In this document: in pieces, positions 52,877 to 62,802 of the stretch
How positions within the stretch are numbered: the first letter of the stretch is position 1
How the letters are laid out: the number at the start of each line of letters is the position of its first letter
Assembly (NCBI RefSeq): GCF_000348745.1
Contig: NC_020812.1
Location: forward strand, 186,001-250,000
Source: Micavibrio aeruginosavorus EPB
Lineage (GTDB): Bacteria > Pseudomonadota > Alphaproteobacteria > Micavibrionales > Micavibrionaceae
Direction of reading: 5' to 3'
DNA length: 64,000 bases
The notes under the pieces: model-generated
The model's input: only the letters and a program-made list of their open reading frames with translations
What the model was told of the DNA's origin: nothing
Databases searched by the model: none
Translations under genes and position numbers: made by a program

Positions 52877-53977
52877 ATGCAGTGGCGTAACACATCTGAA
52901 AATTACGGCGTTGTTGCCAAAAGCTTTCACTGGGTTATCGCCCTGCTGGTGATCGGTCTTCTCGGCGTTGGGCTGTACATGGAATCGCTGGACCCCAGCC
53001 CGCTGATGTTTAAATTGTCCTTCTGGCATAAATCCTTTGGGATTGCGGTGCTGGCGCTGGTGGTTTTGCGCGTTTTGTGGCGTGTCACCAACACCCATCC
53101 GCACAGCCTGCCGACCCATGCGGGGTGGGAAAAGGTGCTGGCGAAAGTGACCCATGGCCTTTTGTATCTGGCGTTGTTTGCCATGCCGTTGTCCGGATGG
53201 ATCATGTCCTCGGCCAAGGGGTTTTCGGTCAATGTCTTCGGATGGTTCACCCTGCCTGACCTGGTGGGGGAAAGTGACCAGATCGCGTCCATCGCGCGGG
53301 CCGTTCACGGCTATGCCGGATATACGCTGATCGTTTTGATTGGTCTGCATTTTGCCGGAGCGATCAAGCATCATGTCATTGACAAGGATTCAACCCTGCG
53401 CCGGATGTTGCCCCAAGTGACGATGATGGTGGCTGTGGTGCTGGCCCTGATGATCGCGCCTGCCGCCGCTTCTGATGCAACGGCTTGGACCCTTCAAAAG
53501 GATCAAAGCACGATCGCGATCGAAGGCACGCAAATGGGTGCACCGTTTAAAGGTGGGTTTAAAAGCTTCGATGGCGTGATTCATTTCGATGCCGATCATC
53601 TGGCGGCGTCCAAGGCTGATATTACGATTGATATCGCCAGTTTCGACAGCGCCAGCAAGGATCGTGACGGGTCGGTGCAGGGGGCGGAATGGTTTGATTC
53701 CAAAACCTACCCGCAAGCCAAATTTGTCACGGATAAATTCGAAGCCGGGACCGATCCGAACAGCTTTATCGCCCATGGCACGTTGACCATTCGCGATAAA
53801 ACCGTACCGGTGCAATTGCCGTTTACATTGGTGATTGACGAAAACGGAACGGCCACGGCGAATGGGTCGGTTACCATCAACCGCATTGATTACGGCGTCG
53901 GGGCCGGACAATGGTCCAACCCCAAGGATGTCGGCACGGATGTAAAGGTTACAATCCATATCGTTGCGACAAAGTGA
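52877..53977 (+). CDS. Cytochrome b561 fused to a YceI domain
   Basis: A 366-residue fusion. Residues ~1-175 are a four-helix di-heme cytochrome b561 with candidate heme histidines in KSFHWVIALL (H18), FWHKSFGIAV, RAVHGYAGYT and GLHFAGAIKH. A further hydrophobic helix (~180-200, TMMVAVVLALMIAPAAASDA) leads to a periplasmic YceI domain (~205-366) with GTLTIRDKTVPVQLPFTL and NRIDYGVGAGQW. The b561 part would move electrons in the membrane, and the tethered YceI would bring a quinone-like lipid; this is inference from the fusion. A terminator follows. Confidence 0.92.
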   Translation: MQWRNTSENYGVVAKSFHWVIALLVIGLLGVGLYMESLDPSPLMFKLSFWHKSFGIAVLALVVLRVLWRVTNTHPHSLPTHAGWEKVLAKVTHGLLYLALFAMPLSGWIMSSAKGFSVNVFGWFTLPDLVGESDQIASIARAVHGYAGYTLIVLIGLHFAGAIKHHVIDKDSTLRRMLPQVTMMVAVVLALMIAPAAASDATAWTLQKDQSTIAIEGTQMGAPFKGGFKSFDGVIHFDADHLAASKADITIDIASFDSASKDRDGSVQGAEWFDSKTYPQAKFVTDKFEAGTDPNSFIAHGTLTIRDKTVPVQLPFTLVIDENGTATANGSVTINRIDYGVGAGQWSNPKDVGTDVKVTIHIVATK

Positions 53978-54016: not shown

Positions 54017-56293
54017 TTATTCTCTGCGCAATTGTGGTTCGGGTGGGGCCGTGGGATAGGATCTTGCGCTGATGGGTTCGGCCGCGCCTGTTACGGCATC
54101 GCCGACCATGGCCCGGGCGGGTTCGGGCAACGCACCCGCAGCGCGTAAATGATCGCGCAGGGCGGCGATGCTGTTTCCAGGTTTTTGGCCCCGGACGTAA
54201 ATGCCAGCGCCCTCATACAGTTCTTCGGCGGTATGAATTGTGATGATATCGCCACGTTTCACATCTTCATAAGCCAGGGCGTATGTCGAAAAGATTTCAG
54301 ACACGCTCATCGGCATACGAAATTGAAAGCCCGCCGGTGTATGAACGATGGGCGTGCGGTTGAAGAACGACCCCCCGGGGACGACGAGCGTCATGCGCCC
54401 CAGCGTCATGTCCTCGGGAACGACAAATTTATAAACCTTGATGGTTTTTTTATTATCCAAAATCTCTTCATGACCGCTGGGCGTTACGAATTTGGCGATG
54501 GTGTTTTCGGTTTCCAGTCCGTCGCGGTGTTTCAATTCAATCATTTTCTGAAGGGCGTTGTTCCATTTGGCTGGATTGATAACACCCGCGCCACAGCGTT
54601 CGTGCCAGGGTAAGCCGCCGCCATTGCTGGTGTAGCGGGCGGATTCGGTTTCAAAATTTGCCGGATTTTGGGCGAACGCATGGTTTTCATCATCTTTGAA
54701 TACGCCGGGGCTTTTAAAGTCCATAATGTCGCGGTCGGCGCTCATCAATCCGGCGGCCATGATTTCTTCGAAAGACAATGCGTCGCCATACCATTCGGCC
54801 ATTTGGCGGTATGTTGCGGCCAGGGCCGGGGTGGCTGTCGATGTGCCGTGTGTTATGGCGCCGTCAAAAGTTGGTACCCGGCTACAGATATCAGCGGCGG
54901 GGTTGCTGTAATGCGCCATAGCGGGGTGCGGTTTTTTATTGTTTTTGCTGGGAAAATCCGCGCTGGCCCCAACCACAACGGCGCGCGGGCTGTGGTTGTA
55001 ATACGAGCCTTCGGCAAGGCGCCCGCCCCCGTTAAACCAGTCATTTCCGCTGGCTTTAAAAATGATGACGTTGTTTTTTTGTAAATCGTTCAGCGTGTTT
55101 TTTACTGTTGTAAAGTCAGGGTGGTTTTCGTCCCGATTCACGATCAAATCTTGCGCGTCCTCGACGTTCGTTGATGCGGGTCCTTCGGATGAGCTGAAGA
55201 CGACGTTGTCGGCAATACGCGCGCCATTATTGTTGAGCAATGCCGTGATGATGTCGCTGTTGTTCGCGTTAATCTGTCGAATGATCGTTTCGTTTACGCC
55301 GTGGAAATTTTTTGTATCGACATCAGGGTTGATCGCCATTGCCGTTTGCAGGGCCGTTTTGAAAACGATGTTGAAATGCGCACCTTTGTCATTGTTGTTC
55401 TGGCTTTCGATGGCCACCAAATCAATTTCACGGTTCGCATGATTTTGGGGTGTTGCCAGACGGGGGAGGTCGGATTTCTTTGCGGCCTTGACCGTGGGCA
55501 TGGTGCGCAAGGTGGCCCCGTTATTTTTTAACATTTCATGCGTCAAATGATTATTGTCCTGCACGATTTGACGCGCTTGCGGGCTTCCCGTTGTGATTCT
55601 TTCGTAATGTCGATCATCAATAAGGCCATACTCTTTCAAAAGATTAAGCATGTCCTTGTTGTATGCATAGTGGGACGGGCCCGGGAATGGGACGACTTTC
55701 TCCCTGTGACCGATCGCATCCTCTTCGCTCATGCCGATATCGTAGAGGAAGCGGATCACCTTTAATGCTTCTTTGGTCTCGCTGACGCTTAAATGTGATT
55801 GTTTCGCAAATGTCGCAAAGGCACGGTCCATGACCGTGATGCCGTATTCATCCTGATATTGTTTATCCGCACCTTTCGCGGCCAGTTTTCTCATCAGTGC
55901 GAAACCGGTTTCTTTTTCAAGGCCCCTTTCAATCATCAGCAGGGTGATTTCCAGCGTGCCATAAGATGTGTCGTCTTCCTGAATGACGATATTCGGGTTT
56001 GCCCCTTGATCCAGCGCGGTGTGCGCCGTCGCGATCAGGGTTTTTGAATCTGGGCCTTCTTTGTCTCGCGCATAGTAAGACGTTTCTCTTATGACTGCAT
56101 CATAGGCGGCCAGAAGAGAATCGTGCAGGGTCTTATCCTGTGGGGTACGGATGGCGTTTTTGTTGTTTTTCGCAATCTTCGCCGTCGGTTCGGCTGTCGT
56201 CTGTGCGGCAACGTCATTGAAGTGGGTGCTGAAACCCAGCAGGGTCAGGCCGGCAGCGGCCAGCGCGGAACGCAGTTTTTGAGCAGACGCCAT
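54017..56293 (-). CDS. Exported ankyrin-subtilase protein without LysM (paralog 1)
   Basis: The 758-residue protein has a signal peptide (~1-31, ending VAAQ) and ankyrin-like repeats (~75-250, DQGANPNIV, AAKGADKQYQDEYGITVMDR). A subtilisin-like (S8) domain spans ~285-530 with the probable triad E294 (LVAIES), H305 (KGAHFN), oxyanion Asn418 (KASGNDW) and Ser near 484 (GTSTATP). A conserved C-terminal module (~640-735, VPEDMTLGRMTLVVPG, TPAGFQFRMPMSVSEIFSTY) is shared with paralogs 2 and 3. The LysM segment of the paralogs is missing. It has its own promoter-like sequence. Confidence 0.8.
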   Translation of the reverse strand: MASAQKLRSALAAAGLTLLGFSTHFNDVAAQTTAEPTAKIAKNNKNAIRTPQDKTLHDSLLAAYDAVIRETSYYARDKEGPDSKTLIATAHTALDQGANPNIVIQEDDTSYGTLEITLLMIERGLEKETGFALMRKLAAKGADKQYQDEYGITVMDRAFATFAKQSHLSVSETKEALKVIRFLYDIGMSEEDAIGHREKVVPFPGPSHYAYNKDMLNLLKEYGLIDDRHYERITTGSPQARQIVQDNNHLTHEMLKNNGATLRTMPTVKAAKKSDLPRLATPQNHANREIDLVAIESQNNNDKGAHFNIVFKTALQTAMAINPDVDTKNFHGVNETIIRQINANNSDIITALLNNNGARIADNVVFSSSEGPASTNVEDAQDLIVNRDENHPDFTTVKNTLNDLQKNNVIIFKASGNDWFNGGGRLAEGSYYNHSPRAVVVGASADFPSKNNKKPHPAMAHYSNPAADICSRVPTFDGAITHGTSTATPALAATYRQMAEWYGDALSFEEIMAAGLMSADRDIMDFKSPGVFKDDENHAFAQNPANFETESARYTSNGGGLPWHERCGAGVINPAKWNNALQKMIELKHRDGLETENTIAKFVTPSGHEEILDNKKTIKVYKFVVPEDMTLGRMTLVVPGGSFFNRTPIVHTPAGFQFRMPMSVSEIFSTYALAYEDVKRGDIITIHTAEELYEGAGIYVRGQKPGNSIAALRDHLRAAGALPEPARAMVGDAVTGAAEPISARSYPTAPPEPQLRRE

Positions 56294-56343
56294 CAGTAAA
56301 CTCCAGAATTGCGACTATAAAGCGTGTTGTTATGGGGGCGCAC

Positions 56344-56371
56344 TTTATCGCAAATCTTCTGGAAAATGCAA
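56344..56371 (-). promoter_or_regulatory. Candidate sigma70-type promoter for subtilase paralog 1
   Basis: On the minus strand TTGCAT (56366-56371) and GATAAA-like GATAAAG (56344-56350) are separated by 16 bases, within an AT-rich gap between a terminator and the paralog 1 start. Match to the consensus is partial. Confidence 0.35.
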
Positions 56372-56405
56372 AAATTATAAATCGTTTATTTTCAAATTGT
56401 TAGGA

Positions 56406-56438
56406 TAATAAAAAGCCCGGATGGCCGGGCTTTTTATT
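56406..56438 (-). terminator. Terminator after subtilase paralog 2
   Basis: Stem AATAAAAAGCCCGG/CCGGGCTTTTTATT, near-perfect, with a four-base loop, centred near 56422. It overlaps the stop of paralog 2 and separates it from paralog 1. Confidence 0.9.
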
Positions 56439-59127
56439 ATCGTTCGAACCGTGACGGGTAAATCGGTGTCGGGGCGATGGGCTGGGGCCGTTGCAGGTCG
56501 ACGGGGTACATGAAATCGGATTCTTTGCCGCCGGCGATTGTTTTCAGTGGTTTAGGTAACGTGCCCGCCGCCTGTAACGCGTCGCGCAGGGCGGCGATGC
56601 TGTTTCCTGTCGCTTGTCCGCGCAGGATGATGCCAGCCCCCGGGGCCAAAGGTTGCGTGGTGCGGATGGTGAACACATCCCCGGCTTTCACATCTTCATA
56701 CGCAAAGGCGAAAGTGGATACGATTTCGCTGAATGATTTTGGCATCCACAGATCAAAGCCCGCCGGGGTGCGTACGGCGATATCGCCATGCGTGCCCAGA
56801 GGGTGCGGGAATTTGAATGTCAGCTTGCCCAGTGTCATGTCTTCAGGCACGCGGACCTGATACACATATTCTGGTTTTTTGGCATGGCCGACCGTGATGC
56901 GGGCGGGTTCCGCCATCGCGGTATGGGTGATAGGCGCCGCGCTCAGGCCTTTTTCAGCCTTTAACGCCAGCATCTTTTGAATGGCGTCGTGCCACGCCGG
57001 AACGTCCAGAATGCCGGGGCCGCATCGTTCATGGTGGGGCAAACCCCCGCCATTGGTGACGAATTCGGCCGGGGCGGACTGCAATGTGACCTCCGCTGGC
57101 GATCCAAACAGGCTTTGGAACGATCCGACATTTTCGAAATCGCGCACGTCGCGGCTGGCCGTCATCATGGCGGCGGCCATGATTTCTTCGAAATTCAACT
57201 GGTCACCGTACCAGGACGCCATTTGCCGATACAATGCGGCGGTTTCCGGTGTTGAAAACGATGTACCGCTAAGCTGTTCGCCCCGGCGGTTGGGCTGCTT
57301 CGCGCAAATGTCGCCGCCAAAGCTGCTGTACGTGCTGATCACGTGGACGGGTTGATCTTTGGACTCCTTGGTTTTGTACATGCCGCTGGATCCGACAATC
57401 ACCGCCCGCGGGGAATGGGTGGTGGAATAGCCCTGCATATACCGCCCGCCGCCGCTATACCAATCATTGCCCGCGGCTTGAAACACGATGGGTTTTGACG
57501 CGTCGAGGCGTTTGATCACCGTATCTGTCGTGCGGTAGAGCAGCGTGTCCGTCGTGTGGTGGACACGTTTCTGGTCGCCCAATTTTTCCGATCGGGTCAT
57601 GCCCATGGAGTGGGTGAACACGACACTATCCATCAACGGAGCGGCGGCGTTGTTAAACAATGCGCGCAGGATGTTGGATGTTTCCCCGCCCGGATAAAAC
57701 ATGATGGATTCTTCGACGGCGTGAAACCGTGTGAAATCCACCTCTGGATTGATGGCAAAGGCCGTGCCCGTGGCGGTGCGGAACGTATCGGTATGGTGGT
57801 CCCCTGTATCACCGGCAGGGCGTTCAACGACGATCAGGTCAACCGGCTTATTCCCCGCCGTGGGGCCGGGGACGACCGGGGCCAGATGGGTGTGGCTGTC
57901 ATACAGATAGGGCACGATAATCGGCCGGTCGCGGGGTATGGCGGCGTTGACATCCATGCCGTTGATGCGGGCCAGATCGGCCGCAATGATGGCCGTCTCG
58001 GCATCCGGGCGGACATATTCGCGGCCCACACTCTTGGCGATTTTTTCAAAACTGGTCGTGGTGTCCTTGTCGCTGATGAACACAAAATCCTGTGCAGGTT
58101 TTGTATGGATTTCCTGTCCAACCGCCACGGGAATGTGCAGGGTTTGGCCCGTGAATACGGGCAGTTTACCCGTATTCTGCGCGATGATGGCGGTGCGGCT
58201 GTCCGCCGTATCGCGTGCGCCCATGATGGGGGCAAAACGTTCGGCCAGTGTGTCCAGCGTGTCGCCGGGCTGAACCGTATATGCAAACGGTTTGAGTGGC
58301 AGGACGACAGAAAAATCCAGCACCTTGGCCCCGTTATCATGCAGCAAATCCATCGTGATGGTGGTGGCGGTGCGCGCGGCATGGGTCGCGGACGGGGTGC
58401 TGTAATGCAGGCGATAATATGTGGCGTAGTCAATCAGCCCGGCGCGCCAGAACTCCTCGGCACTGGCCAGATTGTGAATGATGTCGGTCATGCGGGTGCC
58501 GGCCTGAATTTTTATGGTCTCTTCCGCATCGCTCAGGCTCAGCCCGCGATCCAGCAACCGTTTCATCATTTTCAAGCTCAGGCGCAGGTCGGATCGTGAT
58601 TGATCCTGCGCGTCAATCACGGCTTTGACGGCATGGTCCATCGGGCTGCGTCCGCCGACATCCTGTGATTTGATGTCAGCTCCGCGCTCCATCATGAAAT
58701 CAAACAACTCCGTTGATTCCAACAGGCGCGACACCTGAAACATGGCGCTGAATGCGGTGGAGTAGGCCTCTTCGCCGATCATCAGGGAGCCGTAGCTGTT
58801 GTGATTGATGTCGCCGCCATCGTTCATCAGTTTTTTGATCAGGGCGATATTGCCCCGGACATGCAGATCGTTTTTGGGGTTGTATGATGGGTTGGCATTT
58901 TTCTGCGTCAGCAAAAACTGCCCCAAAATCCCAACTTCGCGGGCCAGGTCGTAATTTAATTTGAACTGTTTCTGGGCGGCGTCCGATTGTGTGGCCAAGC
59001 TTTGCGTTTTGGCTGTCGCATCGGCTTCTTCTATCGCCGGATGGGCGACGCTGTTGAAAGACAGGGTGAGGGCCAGCGCGCTCAGGCTGGCGGAGGCAAC
59101 GATTTTGCGAATATGGCTACGGTTCAT
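56437..59127 (-). CDS. Exported Ank-LysM-subtilase protein (paralog 2)
   Basis: An 896-residue exported protein: signal peptide (~1-29), ankyrin-like repeats (~70-250, MERGADIKSQDVGGRSPMDH), LysM 1 (~281-334, YTVQPGDTLDTLAERFAPIM to GQTLHIPV), a second LysM-like unit (~354-410) and an S8 peptidase domain (~425-665). Candidate active residues are E433 (LIVVER), H444 (DHHTD), Asn553 (AAGNDW) and Ser near 619 (SGTSFSTPETAALYRQ). The shared C-terminal module follows (~765-870). Its ribosome site AGGTGG lies in the 3' end of paralog 3, two bases upstream, so both are one transcript. Probable role: cell-wall-targeted proteolysis. Confidence 0.83.
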   Translation of the reverse strand: MNRSHIRKIVASASLSALALTLSFNSVAHPAIEEADATAKTQSLATQSDAAQKQFKLNYDLAREVGILGQFLLTQKNANPSYNPKNDLHVRGNIALIKKLMNDGGDINHNSYGSLMIGEEAYSTAFSAMFQVSRLLESTELFDFMMERGADIKSQDVGGRSPMDHAVKAVIDAQDQSRSDLRLSLKMMKRLLDRGLSLSDAEETIKIQAGTRMTDIIHNLASAEEFWRAGLIDYATYYRLHYSTPSATHAARTATTITMDLLHDNGAKVLDFSVVLPLKPFAYTVQPGDTLDTLAERFAPIMGARDTADSRTAIIAQNTGKLPVFTGQTLHIPVAVGQEIHTKPAQDFVFISDKDTTTSFEKIAKSVGREYVRPDAETAIIAADLARINGMDVNAAIPRDRPIIVPYLYDSHTHLAPVVPGPTAGNKPVDLIVVERPAGDTGDHHTDTFRTATGTAFAINPEVDFTRFHAVEESIMFYPGGETSNILRALFNNAAAPLMDSVVFTHSMGMTRSEKLGDQKRVHHTTDTLLYRTTDTVIKRLDASKPIVFQAAGNDWYSGGGRYMQGYSTTHSPRAVIVGSSGMYKTKESKDQPVHVISTYSSFGGDICAKQPNRRGEQLSGTSFSTPETAALYRQMASWYGDQLNFEEIMAAAMMTASRDVRDFENVGSFQSLFGSPAEVTLQSAPAEFVTNGGGLPHHERCGPGILDVPAWHDAIQKMLALKAEKGLSAAPITHTAMAEPARITVGHAKKPEYVYQVRVPEDMTLGKLTFKFPHPLGTHGDIAVRTPAGFDLWMPKSFSEIVSTFAFAYEDVKAGDVFTIRTTQPLAPGAGIILRGQATGNSIAALRDALQAAGTLPKPLKTIAGGKESDFMYPVDLQRPQPIAPTPIYPSRFER

Positions 59128-59129
59128 TT

Positions 59130-61844
59130 TTAAAATCCACCTGGAAAGGCTGGTTTGGCACCCGGCGTTTCGGGCAGGGCCTTGTGAATATTGACAGGTT
59201 GGGCGTCGCCCGTGACGGTGTTCATCTGCATGGTTTTTAACGGCGCCGGCAGGGTCCCGTTTCCACGCAGATAATCACGCAATGCGGCGATGGAATTGCC
59301 CGGGGCGTGGCCGTTAAAGACGATTCCCGCCTGCGGGGCCAGCGGTTGCGTAGTGCGCAGTTCAAACACATCCCCGACCTTCACATCTTCATAGGCAAAG
59401 GCGAAGGTGGATAAAACATCCGTGTATGTCCGGGGCAACAGCATTTCAAACCCGGCCGGGGTGCGCACGACCACGTCGCTGTGCGCGTTCTGGAACTGCG
59501 GTAACAGGAATGTCAGCTTGCCCAGTGTCATATCCGTCGGGACCGGGATGCGGTATATGTATTCAGACACGCCGTTTGCATCGGATGTGGTGAACGCATT
59601 TTTGATCGTGACACGCTGGTGCGATACCATGTTGGCGGTCAGGTTAAATTGTGCCTTTAACGACAATGTTTTTTGCAGGGCTTGGTGCCATGATTGCGGC
59701 TCCAGCACACCCGCGCCGCAGCGTTCATGGCGCGGCAATCCGCCGCCATTGGTGGTATAAAGTGCGGGTACGCTGTTCAATGTGGCCAGGGTCGGCGGCA
59801 ATGACGCTGTGTATTTTCCGATATTTTCAACATCCAGAACATCACGGTCCGCGCTCATCAATCCGGCGGCCATGATTTCTTCAAAGCTTAAGCGGTCGCC
59901 ATACCATTCGGCGAACTGGCGATATTGGGCGGCGGTGGACGGGGTGGAAAACGACGTGCCCGTCATAATTTCCCCACGGAAATTCGGTACGCGCGCGCAT
60001 ACATCGGCCCCGTACGAACTGTAATGGGTCATGACGTGCATTTTAACGCCGGGGGCCGTGTTTTTTGTTTTTGCGATCGCGCTGGCCCCGATCAATACGG
60101 CACGCGGTGAATGGGTCAGGGTATATCCCTGCATATACCGCCCAGCCCCATAGCTGTACCAGTAATTGCCCGCGGCGTTGAAAATAATGGGTTTTGACTG
60201 GTTCAGCGGGTCCAGCATCATGGCAATGGATTCGACATTGCGGTCATTCGCGGTGCGGGCCTGTCGCGCGTCATTGGCTGCGTTTTCCTTGATTGCGGTG
60301 CCCATGGAATGGGTGAAAACCATGCGGTTGTTGGGTGAATCGGCGGCATCGTTGCGCGTATTGGCGCTGAACAACGCGCGCAAGGCATCCGGAATTTGTG
60401 CGCTTGGGTAATCGATGGGCAGGGTTTCAATCGTGTGAATGCGATTCATGTCCGCTGCCGGATTCAGGCCATAGGTCGTGCCCGCAGCGATTCTGTAGGT
60501 ATCGCGGTGGTGCGCGTCTTCGACCTTGATGGGTAGGGGGTTGCCCTCAATCACGAATAAATCGACCGGATTGCGCGCGGCGCTTGGGTCCGGCTGGATC
60601 AGTTTGACGTGCGTGTGGCTGTCGTTCGTATATGGGAACAGAATCTTTTGCCCGGATTCCAGCTTGGTGTCGATGGGCAGGTTGTTCATCGCGGCCAGCT
60701 CCGCCGCAATGGTCTTGATGGATGCGCCGGGGCGGTAATAATGCGTGGCATTGCCCTCGGCCAGTAACTTAAAGGTGGCCCCTGTGCTGTAAACGCTGAT
60801 GGTGCCGATTTCGCGACCGGGGGGCAGGGGAATATTGACCGTATGCCCGGCGGACAGCGGGGTGTCATTGGCCTGTGTAATCAAGGTGCGGGCATGATCC
60901 AGATCAATCGCCCCCATGACCGAGGCGAAGCGTGTCACGATCGTGTCCAGCGTGTCATCCGCCGTGATCGTAACGCGGAAGGGCCCGCCGGGGCGTGAAT
61001 CCGTGAAATCCGGCGTCTGGGCCCCATATTCCTGTAACAAAGCGGGGGTGATGGTGTCCGCGTTTAACAGGGCATCGCGAGCCGCATCGGACCCGGTTAT
61101 AATTTTTCTATAGACATCATCAGGCACCAGCCCGTGATCGCGCAGCACGCTCAACCCGAACAGGTTTTTGGCGGTCGCTGCGTAATCGCGCTGCGCGACG
61201 CCTTTGAGCCGCTCGCGTGTGTCGTTCAGGGTCAGGCCGCGGGCTTCCAATGTTTGGACGATTCGCAAGGCGGCTTCGACTTTTTCGCGGGACACAAGCT
61301 GGGCGTCCTGCAAATTGCTGACGGCGTAATCCATCACGCTCCACCCATCGGCATCAATCGCCTGCAGATCCGGATTTTTGCTCAGCACATGGTCCAGAAT
61401 CTCCGTGGTCATCATCATCGCGGAGAGCTGGATCGCTGCGAACAAAGGGCTGGATACGCTGGTCTTGCCCACGCGCATGCCTTTTTCAATGCGAAAATTC
61501 GGGTTGGCGCCGCGATCCAACAGGGATTTGATCGTGTCGATATTGATGCGGATGTAATCGTCCGTGGCGGGGTTGTAATTGGTGATGCTGCCCGACCGTT
61601 CCTCGATCAAGCGGCCCAGGGCGCGCATTTCGGCGACAAGGTCGTTATTCAAATGGTACAGCGGATCAATCACAACGCTCAGCGGCGGGGGCGAAACGGG
61701 CAGGGAAGCCGGGTCCGGCGTTTGCGGACGGTCCAGATTATCGTTGATGGGCGAGATGGCGGCGGCGTTAAAAGCGCCCAGTAATGTTGCGAATCCCAGC
61801 CCAGCGGCGGCCAGAAGCCGCGCCCGTTTTTGAACGGTAGCCAT
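59130..61844 (-). CDS. Exported Ank-LysM-subtilase protein (paralog 3)
   Basis: The 904-residue first gene of the unit has a signal peptide (~1-28, ending AAAIS), a Pro-rich segment and ankyrin-like repeats (~85-190, LLDRGANPNFRIEKGM). Two LysM-like units follow (~290-335, ADDTLDTIVTRF to GHTVNIPLP; ~358-408). The S8 domain has E432 (LFVIEG), H near 445 (DAHHRD), Asn near 560 (AAGNYW) and Ser near 628 (GTSFSTPSTAAQYRQ). The C-terminal module is VPTDMTLGKLTFLLPQ and TPAGFEMLLPRTYTDVLSTF. Family membership is clear from the paralogs; substrate and target cell are unknown. Confidence 0.83.
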   Translation of the reverse strand: MATVQKRARLLAAAGLGFATLLGAFNAAAISPINDNLDRPQTPDPASLPVSPPPLSVVIDPLYHLNNDLVAEMRALGRLIEERSGSITNYNPATDDYIRINIDTIKSLLDRGANPNFRIEKGMRVGKTSVSSPLFAAIQLSAMMMTTEILDHVLSKNPDLQAIDADGWSVMDYAVSNLQDAQLVSREKVEAALRIVQTLEARGLTLNDTRERLKGVAQRDYAATAKNLFGLSVLRDHGLVPDDVYRKIITGSDAARDALLNADTITPALLQEYGAQTPDFTDSRPGGPFRVTITADDTLDTIVTRFASVMGAIDLDHARTLITQANDTPLSAGHTVNIPLPPGREIGTISVYSTGATFKLLAEGNATHYYRPGASIKTIAAELAAMNNLPIDTKLESGQKILFPYTNDSHTHVKLIQPDPSAARNPVDLFVIEGNPLPIKVEDAHHRDTYRIAAGTTYGLNPAADMNRIHTIETLPIDYPSAQIPDALRALFSANTRNDAADSPNNRMVFTHSMGTAIKENAANDARQARTANDRNVESIAMMLDPLNQSKPIIFNAAGNYWYSYGAGRYMQGYTLTHSPRAVLIGASAIAKTKNTAPGVKMHVMTHYSSYGADVCARVPNFRGEIMTGTSFSTPSTAAQYRQFAEWYGDRLSFEEIMAAGLMSADRDVLDVENIGKYTASLPPTLATLNSVPALYTTNGGGLPRHERCGAGVLEPQSWHQALQKTLSLKAQFNLTANMVSHQRVTIKNAFTTSDANGVSEYIYRIPVPTDMTLGKLTFLLPQFQNAHSDVVVRTPAGFEMLLPRTYTDVLSTFAFAYEDVKVGDVFELRTTQPLAPQAGIVFNGHAPGNSIAALRDYLRGNGTLPAPLKTMQMNTVTGDAQPVNIHKALPETPGAKPAFPGGF

Positions 61845-62133: not shown

Positions 62134-62802
62134 ATGAGAACTCTGTATCATCTTTGGCTTCACCCCTTTTCACGGAAGGTGCGCATCGCACTGGCCGAGA
62201 AGAAGCTCGATTTCGAGCAGCGTATTGAAAAAGTGTGGGAACGCCGGACCGAGTTTCTGGCCCTGAACCCCGCGGGCGATGTCCCGGTTCTGGTCGAAGC
62301 CGATGGCACGACCTTGGCCAACTCTCAGGTCATTTGCGAATATCTCGAAGAAGTCTACCCAGAGATTAATCTGCTGGGCTTTGATCCGGCACAGCGCGCG
62401 GAAACGCGCCGCCTGGTCAGCTGGTTCGATGTGAAATTCAACCGCGAAGTCACCGACAATCTGGTCGGCGAAAAATTGATGAAGCGGTTTTTAAAATTGG
62501 GTGAACCGCATGGCCCGTCTATTCGCGCCGGTCATGCCAACATTCACTACCATCTGGATTATATCGGTTTTCTGACGGAAAAACGCCGTTGGTTGGCCGG
62601 TGAGAATTTTTCGCTGGCGGATATTGCGGCGGCGTCGCATTTATCAGCCATCGATTATATCGGCGACGTTCCATGGGATGAGCATCAGGCCGCCCGGGAA
62701 TGGTATGCACGCGTGAAATCCCGGCCCAGCTTCCAGCCTCTGCTGGAGGATCGGATCCCCGGATTTACGCCTGTTGGCCACTACGAAAACGTAGATTTCT
62801 AA
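62134..62802 (+). CDS. Glutathione-transferase-fold protein, FzlA-like
   Basis: The 222 residues have the GST thioredoxin-like domain (~1-80, TLYHLWLHPFSRKVRIALAE, NPAGDVPVLVEADGTTLANS) and a helical C-terminal domain (~85-215) with FSLADIAAASHLSAIDYIG. The HPFSRKVR start and C-terminal GFTPVGHYENVDF resemble alphaproteobacterial FzlA. FzlA binds FtsZ filaments and is required for constriction rather than for glutathione conjugation. The ordinary reading as a GST cannot be excluded. The next gene, an epimerase-like protein, is a usual neighbour in this class, though queG, often between them, is absent. Confidence 0.75.
   Translation: MRTLYHLWLHPFSRKVRIALAEKKLDFEQRIEKVWERRTEFLALNPAGDVPVLVEADGTTLANSQVICEYLEEVYPEINLLGFDPAQRAETRRLVSWFDVKFNREVTDNLVGEKLMKRFLKLGEPHGPSIRAGHANIHYHLDYIGFLTEKRRWLAGENFSLADIAAASHLSAIDYIGDVPWDEHQAAREWYARVKSRPSFQPLLEDRIPGFTPVGHYENVDF

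What the first reader, a model, noticed from the sequence alone, without database searches (positions are those of the whole stretch)
54017..61844. Tandem family of exported proteins combining ankyrin repeats, LysM and a subtilisin-like peptidase
Three paralogs in a row share signal peptide, ankyrin-like repeats, an S8-type core (AAGN and GTSxSTP motifs) and a C-terminal module I cannot name (VPEDMTLGK, TPAGF, FSEIxSTxAxAYED). Two of them also carry LysM units, which bind peptidoglycan in known families. Ankyrin plus LysM plus subtilase in one secreted chain is not an architecture I know. A wall-docked protease for attacking or remodelling other cells would fit a predator, but that is inference.
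Basis: partly seen in the sequence, partly recalled or inferred. Interest (0 to 1): 0.87.

Follow-up and report, generated by a model that had tools for sequence, protein, structure and literature searches.

The report
Wall-binding kexin-like proteases, altered triad
A predatory bacterium carries three neighbouring genes for exported proteins built like the protein-cutting enzymes furin and kexin, two of them with cell-wall-binding domains, and all three appear to use glutamate where such enzymes normally use aspartate.

Summary
The three ORFs and their modules are real. Order: export signal, ankyrin-like helical domain, two LysM units (absent from the 54017-56293 protein), subtilase (S8) domain, C-terminal beta module. 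AlphaFold2 plus structure search matches the last two parts to furin/kexin catalytic + P-domain (furin Z 19.4, kexin 18.2, Aeromonas ASP 16.8), so the unnamed module is a P-domain relative. Thirty of 30 top-scoring S8 controls have Asp; a few other alphaproteobacterial S8s also show Glu. The genome belongs to the genus of the predator Micavibrio aeruginosavorus ARL-13. All 5 genomes held of that genus carry the family, in three copies only here and in ARL-13; 13 of 142 genomes of the order match over the core. Among 384 other class genomes one strong match turned up. Most likely: an envelope-located, wall-docked kexin-like endopeptidase with a Glu-His-Ser triad. Catalysis, location and a predation role are inferred; most members score below Pfam's S8 cut-off, and triad geometry could not be measured.

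The parts
59130..61844 (-). P3: 904 aa. Signal peptide ~1-29; ankyrin-like helical region ~61-272; LysM1 289-338; LysM2 344-406; S8 catalytic domain ~408-725 (E433, H445, S513, N560, S631); P-domain-like beta module ~739-880; only Cys 616 and 709
56437..59127 (-). P2: 896 aa, same order. LysM1 ~281-332, LysM2 ~338-408; E435, S623; only Cys 608 and 702
54017..56293 (-). P1: 758 aa, no LysM. S8 (E296, S485) plus P-domain-like module by alignment; only Cys 470 and 567; 52.5% identical to its ARL-13 counterpart
52877..53977 (+). Flanking cytochrome b561-YceI fusion (names recalled from sequence), part of the cluster that hosts the genes
62134..62802 (+). Flanking glutathione-S-transferase-like gene (name recalled), the other edge of the cluster; matched in 99 of 104 family genomes

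Best explanation
P1-P3 are exported, kexin-like serine endopeptidases of the cell envelope. Shown or well supported: intact genes under purifying selection; an S8-type catalytic domain followed by a P-domain-like module; two LysM units in P2 and P3; Glu, His and Ser invariant at what the model shows as the triad places. Moderately supported: an ankyrin-like N-terminal domain. Inferred: Glu replaces Asp as the acid that orients the catalytic His, as in the Ser-His-Glu triad of acetylcholinesterase (recalled), and the enzyme is active; LysM holds P2 and P3 on peptidoglycan while P1 is untethered; the invariant Cys pair is a disulphide; the ankyrin-like part binds a partner or keeps the enzyme silent, standing where subtilases usually have a propeptide (recalled). 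Likely task: cutting proteins in the periplasm or at the predator-prey contact, so that degradation or surface maturation happens at the wall. A role in predation is the favoured but unproven use.
For: Furin Z 19.4 (344 residues, rmsd 3.7, model 340-847), kexin 18.2, ASP 16.8; Foldseek rows 1-10 are all ASP or furin. Model of P3 pLDDT 84, pTM 0.83: E433 ends strand 428-433, H445 lies near the start of helix 442-460, N560 follows strand 553-557, S631 is at the start of helix 630-648. Only 9 columns are invariant in 22 sequences; they include E, H and S, and E is the only invariant acid. hhalign to ordinary S8 prob 97.6; to three S8 proteins that match Pfam P_proprotein (one over cut-off) prob 98.3, reaching into the C-terminal module. 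Glu and Asp interchange at the same site in the G147 S8 paralogues (E, E, D, E). P2 and P3 dN/dS 0.09 and 0.07, lowest change in the S8 core. LysM over cut-off in two relatives. Present in 5 of 5 genomes held of the genus.
Against: S8 passes Pfam's cut-off in only 1 of 12 members scanned, LysM in 2 of 12. Profile alignment to ordinary S8 covered only the C-terminal half; in the N-half comparison His and Asn aligned but Glu did not fall on Asp, at 5-9% probability. The loop next to E433 is of low confidence (436-442, pLDDT under 50). No transcript or protein evidence was seen. Found in a minority of the order. One member (G018a) lacks the oxyanion Asn. P1 was not modelled.
Confidence: 0.6

Rival explanations
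1. Housekeeping envelope protease: an active, wall-held peptidase that matures or clears the cell's own periplasmic or outer-membrane proteins, with no special part in predation.
For: LysM would bind the cell's own periplasmic wall (established knowledge); one copy found in each of the other 3 genomes of the genus, all drafts, beside b561/YceI/GST genes; strong purifying selection on P2 and P3.
Against: Core found in only 13 of 142 genomes of the order, so not general housekeeping; three copies, one with a highly divergent allele, in the two complete predator genomes.
Confidence: 0.3
2. Pseudopeptidase or scaffold: the Asp-to-Glu change marks loss of catalysis and the chain now binds wall and protein partners.
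For: Glu at the Asp position in 22 of 22; short loop before the His; oxyanion Asn lost in one member.
Against: His, Ser and Glu all invariant and Asn kept in 21 of 22, in a family with only 9 invariant columns; core least changed between strains; other S8s with His and Ser in place also carry Glu.
Confidence: 0.2
3. The catalytic acid is another residue and E433 is incidental.
For: No residue-level alignment of E433 to Asp was obtained.
Against: E433 is the only invariant acid in 22 sequences, ends the strand before the His helix, and the homologous site of a related group holds Asp in G147c.
Confidence: 0.12
4. Chance or artefact: the domain calls are over-reading of degenerate sequence.
For: Sub-threshold Pfam scores for P1-P3.
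Against: Some relatives pass the cut-offs; confident model with furin-like fold.
Confidence: 0.02

Closest known systems
Furin / kexin / Aeromonas sobria ASP (S8 catalytic domain + P-domain)
   Same: Order catalytic domain then P-domain; fold match over both
   Different: 14-17% identity in the structural alignments; Glu instead of Asp; His only 9-12 positions after the acid in P1-P3; N-terminal ankyrin-like + LysM
Tandem S8 + P-domain pair elsewhere in this genome (G000:C1 ~285.7-288.6 kb)
   Same: Divergent S8 with C-terminal P-domain match (1.6e-4, over cut-off; and 0.022, under); by eye an Ile-Glu precedes a His-rich stretch
   Different: No ankyrin or LysM hit at E 0.1; 491 and 482 aa; triad placing not tested
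Alphaproteobacterial S8s with ankyrin repeats: G147 paralogues and G491
   Same: Ankyrin and S8 in one chain (two G147 proteins and G491); Glu at the acid site in three of four G147 paralogues
   Different: Ankyrin C-terminal in G147; G491 has canonical Asp; no LysM or P-domain hit
Bdellovibrio Bd3460 ankyrin self-protection protein (PMC4686830, passages read)
   Same: Exported ankyrin protein of a predator that binds and blocks its own wall enzymes: a possible model for a silencing ankyrin part
   Different: Separate small protein against DD-endopeptidases; the paper reports that gene pair absent in related epibiotic strains; homology not tested

Membership tests
Peptidase S8 (subtilase) | Subtilisin-like fold | tested here: met
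   P3 model; hhalign prob 97.6 over the C-terminal half
Peptidase S8 (subtilase) | Catalytic Ser at the start of its helix (GTS motif), and catalytic His | tested here: met
   S631 and H445 invariant, 22 of 22; positions in model
Peptidase S8 (subtilase) | Catalytic Asp (D-H-S triad) | tested here: not met
   Glu in 22 of 22 against Asp in 30 of 30 fetched best-scoring class S8s (choosing best scorers favours canonical ones). Hence described as a variant that works like an S8, not as a canonical D-H-S member
Peptidase S8 (subtilase) | Oxyanion-hole Asn | tested here: met
   N560, 21 of 22
Kexin/furin-type (S8B) | P-domain directly after the catalytic domain | tested here: met
   by fold and profile comparison; no direct Pfam P_proprotein hit for P1-P3
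Kexin/furin-type (S8B) | Acidic pockets giving dibasic specificity; calcium sites | not testable with these tools
   no coordinates available
LysM | Beta-alpha-alpha-beta unit with family profile match | tested here: met
   P2 by profile (just under cut-off) and model, P3 by model and alignment, two relatives over cut-off; P1 lacks it
LysM | Peptidoglycan binding | not testable with these tools
   needs protein
Ankyrin repeat | Repeat motif and stacked helix-turn-helix fold | tested here: inconclusive
   Weak profile scores; structure rows for the P2 N-terminal fragment mostly name ankyrin repeats, DARPins or RNase L, some titles do not tell; best Foldseek E 4.2e-3, best Z 12.4, within the range the tool warns about for helical repeats; RNase L ankyrin Z 10.2, rmsd 1.8 over 100 residues

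The most novel reading that the evidence does not exclude
A lineage of kexin-like subtilases in Alphaproteobacteria works with a Glu-His-Ser triad on a shortened loop. In Micavibrio it has been fitted with peptidoglycan-binding and ankyrin parts and triplicated, giving a wall-anchored, perhaps self-silenced protease set used at the predator-prey contact.
Probability: 0.3. Interest if true: 0.75.

Novelty: new variant of a known kind. Interest (0 to 1): 0.58.

Why it matters
The Asp-His-Ser triad is the textbook definition of subtilases (recalled). A whole family with Glu at that place would be a natural test of how far the catalytic acid can change. For predation biology it names concrete candidate envelope proteases in an epibiotic predator, whose ARL-13 genome paper counts 49 proteases and peptidases while its main text does not contain the words ankyrin, LysM or subtilisin.

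Tried and rejected
Single-sequence scan of genome contigs with P3 found no relative; the alignment scan found 7, five of them titled Micavibrio. Single-sequence PDB search gave only 5eil and 4hb5 (E 0.059 and 0.94), both over the ankyrin-like part. The profile search listed 41 distinct sequences, all but two (8tx1, 9qgq) named as subtilisins, kexins, C5a peptidases or other serine proteases, best E 0.005. hhalign of the N-half did not put Glu on Asp. NCBIfam gave nothing for P1-P3 at E 0.01. Promoter-like sites are no more than shuffles give (6 against 6.6); terminator-like sites 19 against 12.8, sd 3.7, not pursued. The tree leaves the branching among P1, P2, P3 and the other members of the larger clade unresolved, with long branches. 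Fast adaptive evolution of P1 was considered; allele replacement or old divergence fits better, since its synonymous sites are saturated (dS 2.1 against 0.2-0.76 in the eight other genes) and dN/dS is 0.20. Paper searches for Ank+LysM+S8 and for Glu-His-Ser or Ser-His-Glu or Glu-for-Asp subtilases (the first two returned nothing) listed no paper on this architecture or triad by title and abstract start; I opened none of those hits. PMC12546842 on a Bdellovibrio prey-lytic protease, passages only, has no 'subtilisin', 'LysM' or 'ankyrin' in its main text.

Full report
What is there. Three minus-strand ORFs, P3 (59130-61844, 904 aa), P2 (56437-59127, 896 aa) and P1 (54017-56293, 758 aa), lie in transcription order P3-P2-P1 with 2 bp and 143 bp between them. 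With P3 as query the genome (2,458,610 bp) holds no other homologue at E 0.001; Pfam S8 finds a further, more distant pair at 286-288 kb. Genus-mate G002 is 2,481,983 bp, the published size of Micavibrio aeruginosavorus ARL-13 (section read), and 5 of the 7 named records of other carriers are titled Micavibrio.

Domains. Pfam gives P2 a LysM (E 6.5e-4) and S8 (1.6e-3), both just under the cut-offs, P3 a trace of ankyrin (0.055) and P1 nothing relevant. Of 12 family members scanned, S8 is over cut-off in 1 (L007, 1.6e-5) and LysM in 2 (L011, 2.5e-6; L057, 2.2e-6); the others score below the cut-off or are not listed. The AlphaFold2 model of P3 on 14 sequences has pLDDT 84.2 and pTM 0.83 and shows two beta-alpha-alpha-beta units (289-338, 344-406), the LysM pattern. 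A model of P2's N-terminal part shows the same two units, with pTM 0.50. Structure search of the P3 model puts Aeromonas ASP and furin first; furin aligns over 344 residues at Z 19.4, kexin at 18.2 and ASP at 16.8. The match runs to about residue 847 and so takes in the C-terminal module. hhalign links the family at 98.3% with three other S8 proteins, two from this genome and one from G447, that match Pfam P_proprotein (1.6e-4 over cut-off; 5.2e-4 and 0.022 under); the aligned stretch ends inside the C-terminal module. The N-terminal helical region finds mostly ankyrin-type structures with modest scores; I call it ankyrin-like. P1 was not modelled.

The triad. In 22 core sequences from 13 genomes nine columns are invariant: E27, H39, S107, G180, G223, S225, G304, G306 and Y358. 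E27, H39 and S225 are E433, H445 and S631 of P3. In the model E433 closes the first strand of the domain, H445 lies near the start of the following helix, S513 follows strand 508-512, N560 follows strand 553-557 and S631 is at the start of its helix; these are the places of Asp32, His64, Ser125, Asn155 and Ser221 in subtilisin (recalled). The His follows the acid by 9 to 12 positions in P1-P3, about 32 in subtilisin (recalled). As control, the 30 loci delivered for the best Pfam S8 matches in 115 class genomes all have Asp (one read by eye); top scorers favour canonical ones. Of 10 lower-scoring places read by eye, G147a, G147b, G147d and G226 have Glu, G147c, G175 and G234 have Asp, and G154, G215 and G241 were not assigned. 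G147's four paralogues align with E, E, D, E at the site; the G147a ORF as called begins at the site itself and may be incomplete. The S8 proteins of G411 and G316 also show Glu; G411 matches Pfam S8 over its full length. So Glu is unusual but not confined to this family. C616 and C709 are invariant in the 14 sequences of A1, and 12 of the 14 have no other Cys (G013 has 4, G018a 3), which suggests a disulphide and an oxidising location; of the divergent relatives G114a has 1 Cys and G115a none.

Distribution. In the order, 46 of 142 genomes match the full-length profile at E 0.001. By my reading of the rows 13 of them match over the S8 core at E 1e-14 or better; the other 33 match only over the N-terminal part (not checked one by one) or weakly over S8, as G062 and G079, whose proteins are ordinary S8 + P-domain chains by eye. 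All 5 genomes held of the genus are among the 13. In the class, 11 of 385 genomes match the core profile; besides this genome only G447 is strong (E 9e-23), and it has no ankyrin or LysM hit. I read 7 of the 10 other matches (not G061, G195, G281). In the phylum sample 3 of 398 match, the two others weak and unread. Bdellovibrio and other predators outside the phylum were not searched.

Locus and evolution. The genes sit between a GST-like gene and a b561/YceI cluster. One copy lies at or near this place in G001, G003 and G004 (drafts, 81-88% complete) and in G013 of another genus; three copies are seen only here and in ARL-13. Of the 30 best GST loci fetched (of 99 matches), with up to 1.5 kb flanks, 6 show the S8 family, 20 show b561/YceI near GST without it, and 4 show neither; among the 20, G018, G025 and G122 carry family genes elsewhere. 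This fits gain, or repeated loss, at a conserved site. Between this genome and ARL-13, P2 and P3 are 91.3% and 90.3% identical with dN/dS 0.09 and 0.07. P1 is 52.5% identical with saturated synonymous sites (dS 2.1; eight other genes 0.2-0.76), so it looks like a replaced or anciently divergent allele. In the tree P1, P2 and P3 each pair across the two strains (100/100), so the three copies probably predate their split.

How it probably works. The chain is exported. P2 and P3 would be held on peptidoglycan by LysM, P1 not. The kexin-like domain cuts nearby proteins with a Glu-supported His-Ser pair, and the ankyrin-like part, where subtilases usually have a propeptide (recalled), binds a partner or the enzyme itself. 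Only the anatomy and conservation are shown; location, activity, silencing and targets are inferred. Bdellovibrio's exported ankyrin protein Bd3460, which blocks that predator's own wall enzymes (PMC4686830, passages), makes a silencing role conceivable, no more.

Literature. Of the ARL-13 genome paper PMC3189940 I read passages, the outline and sections 5 and 14: its main text has no 'ankyrin', 'LysM' or 'subtilisin', and it reports that hydrolytic enzymes as a group barely change between phases. Searches for the architecture and for a Glu triad in subtilases listed no paper on either, judged by titles and abstract starts, in the open-licence library only.

Verdict. It is a new variant of a known kind (kexin-like S8). 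The strongest new point is the family-wide Glu at the catalytic Asp position; the predation role remains open.

Noticed in passing
L087:7720-10644 (G000:C1 ~285.7-288.6 kb), outside the window: A second tandem pair of divergent S8 + P-domain proteins (491 and 482 aa) in the same genome, each by eye with an Ile-Glu a short way before a His-rich stretch.
   Followed up: partly
L160-L163 (genome G147): Four short-loop S8 proteins, Glu at the acid site in three and Asp in one; two carry long C-terminal ankyrin arrays.
   Followed up: partly
L084:6678-9374 (genome G491): Apparently exported Ank + canonical S8 + long C-terminal extension that looks like an autotransporter (impression, not tested).
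   Followed up: partly
L086 and L089 (genomes G411, G316): S8 proteins with lipoprotein-like N-termini (impression) and Glu (IMEE) where Asp is expected.
   Followed up: partly
window 52877-53977 and L061, L063: Cytochrome b561 and YceI are fused here but separate in G001 and G004, and the S8 gene sits between the two there.
   Followed up: partly
window 54017-61844, N-termini: The signal peptides share an FN..A motif near the predicted cleavage site, seen also in the 9 other complete clade proteins tested and in G115a, and in no other of 77 mechanical window ORFs of at least 150 aa; the partial G018c protein lacks it there.
   Followed up: partly
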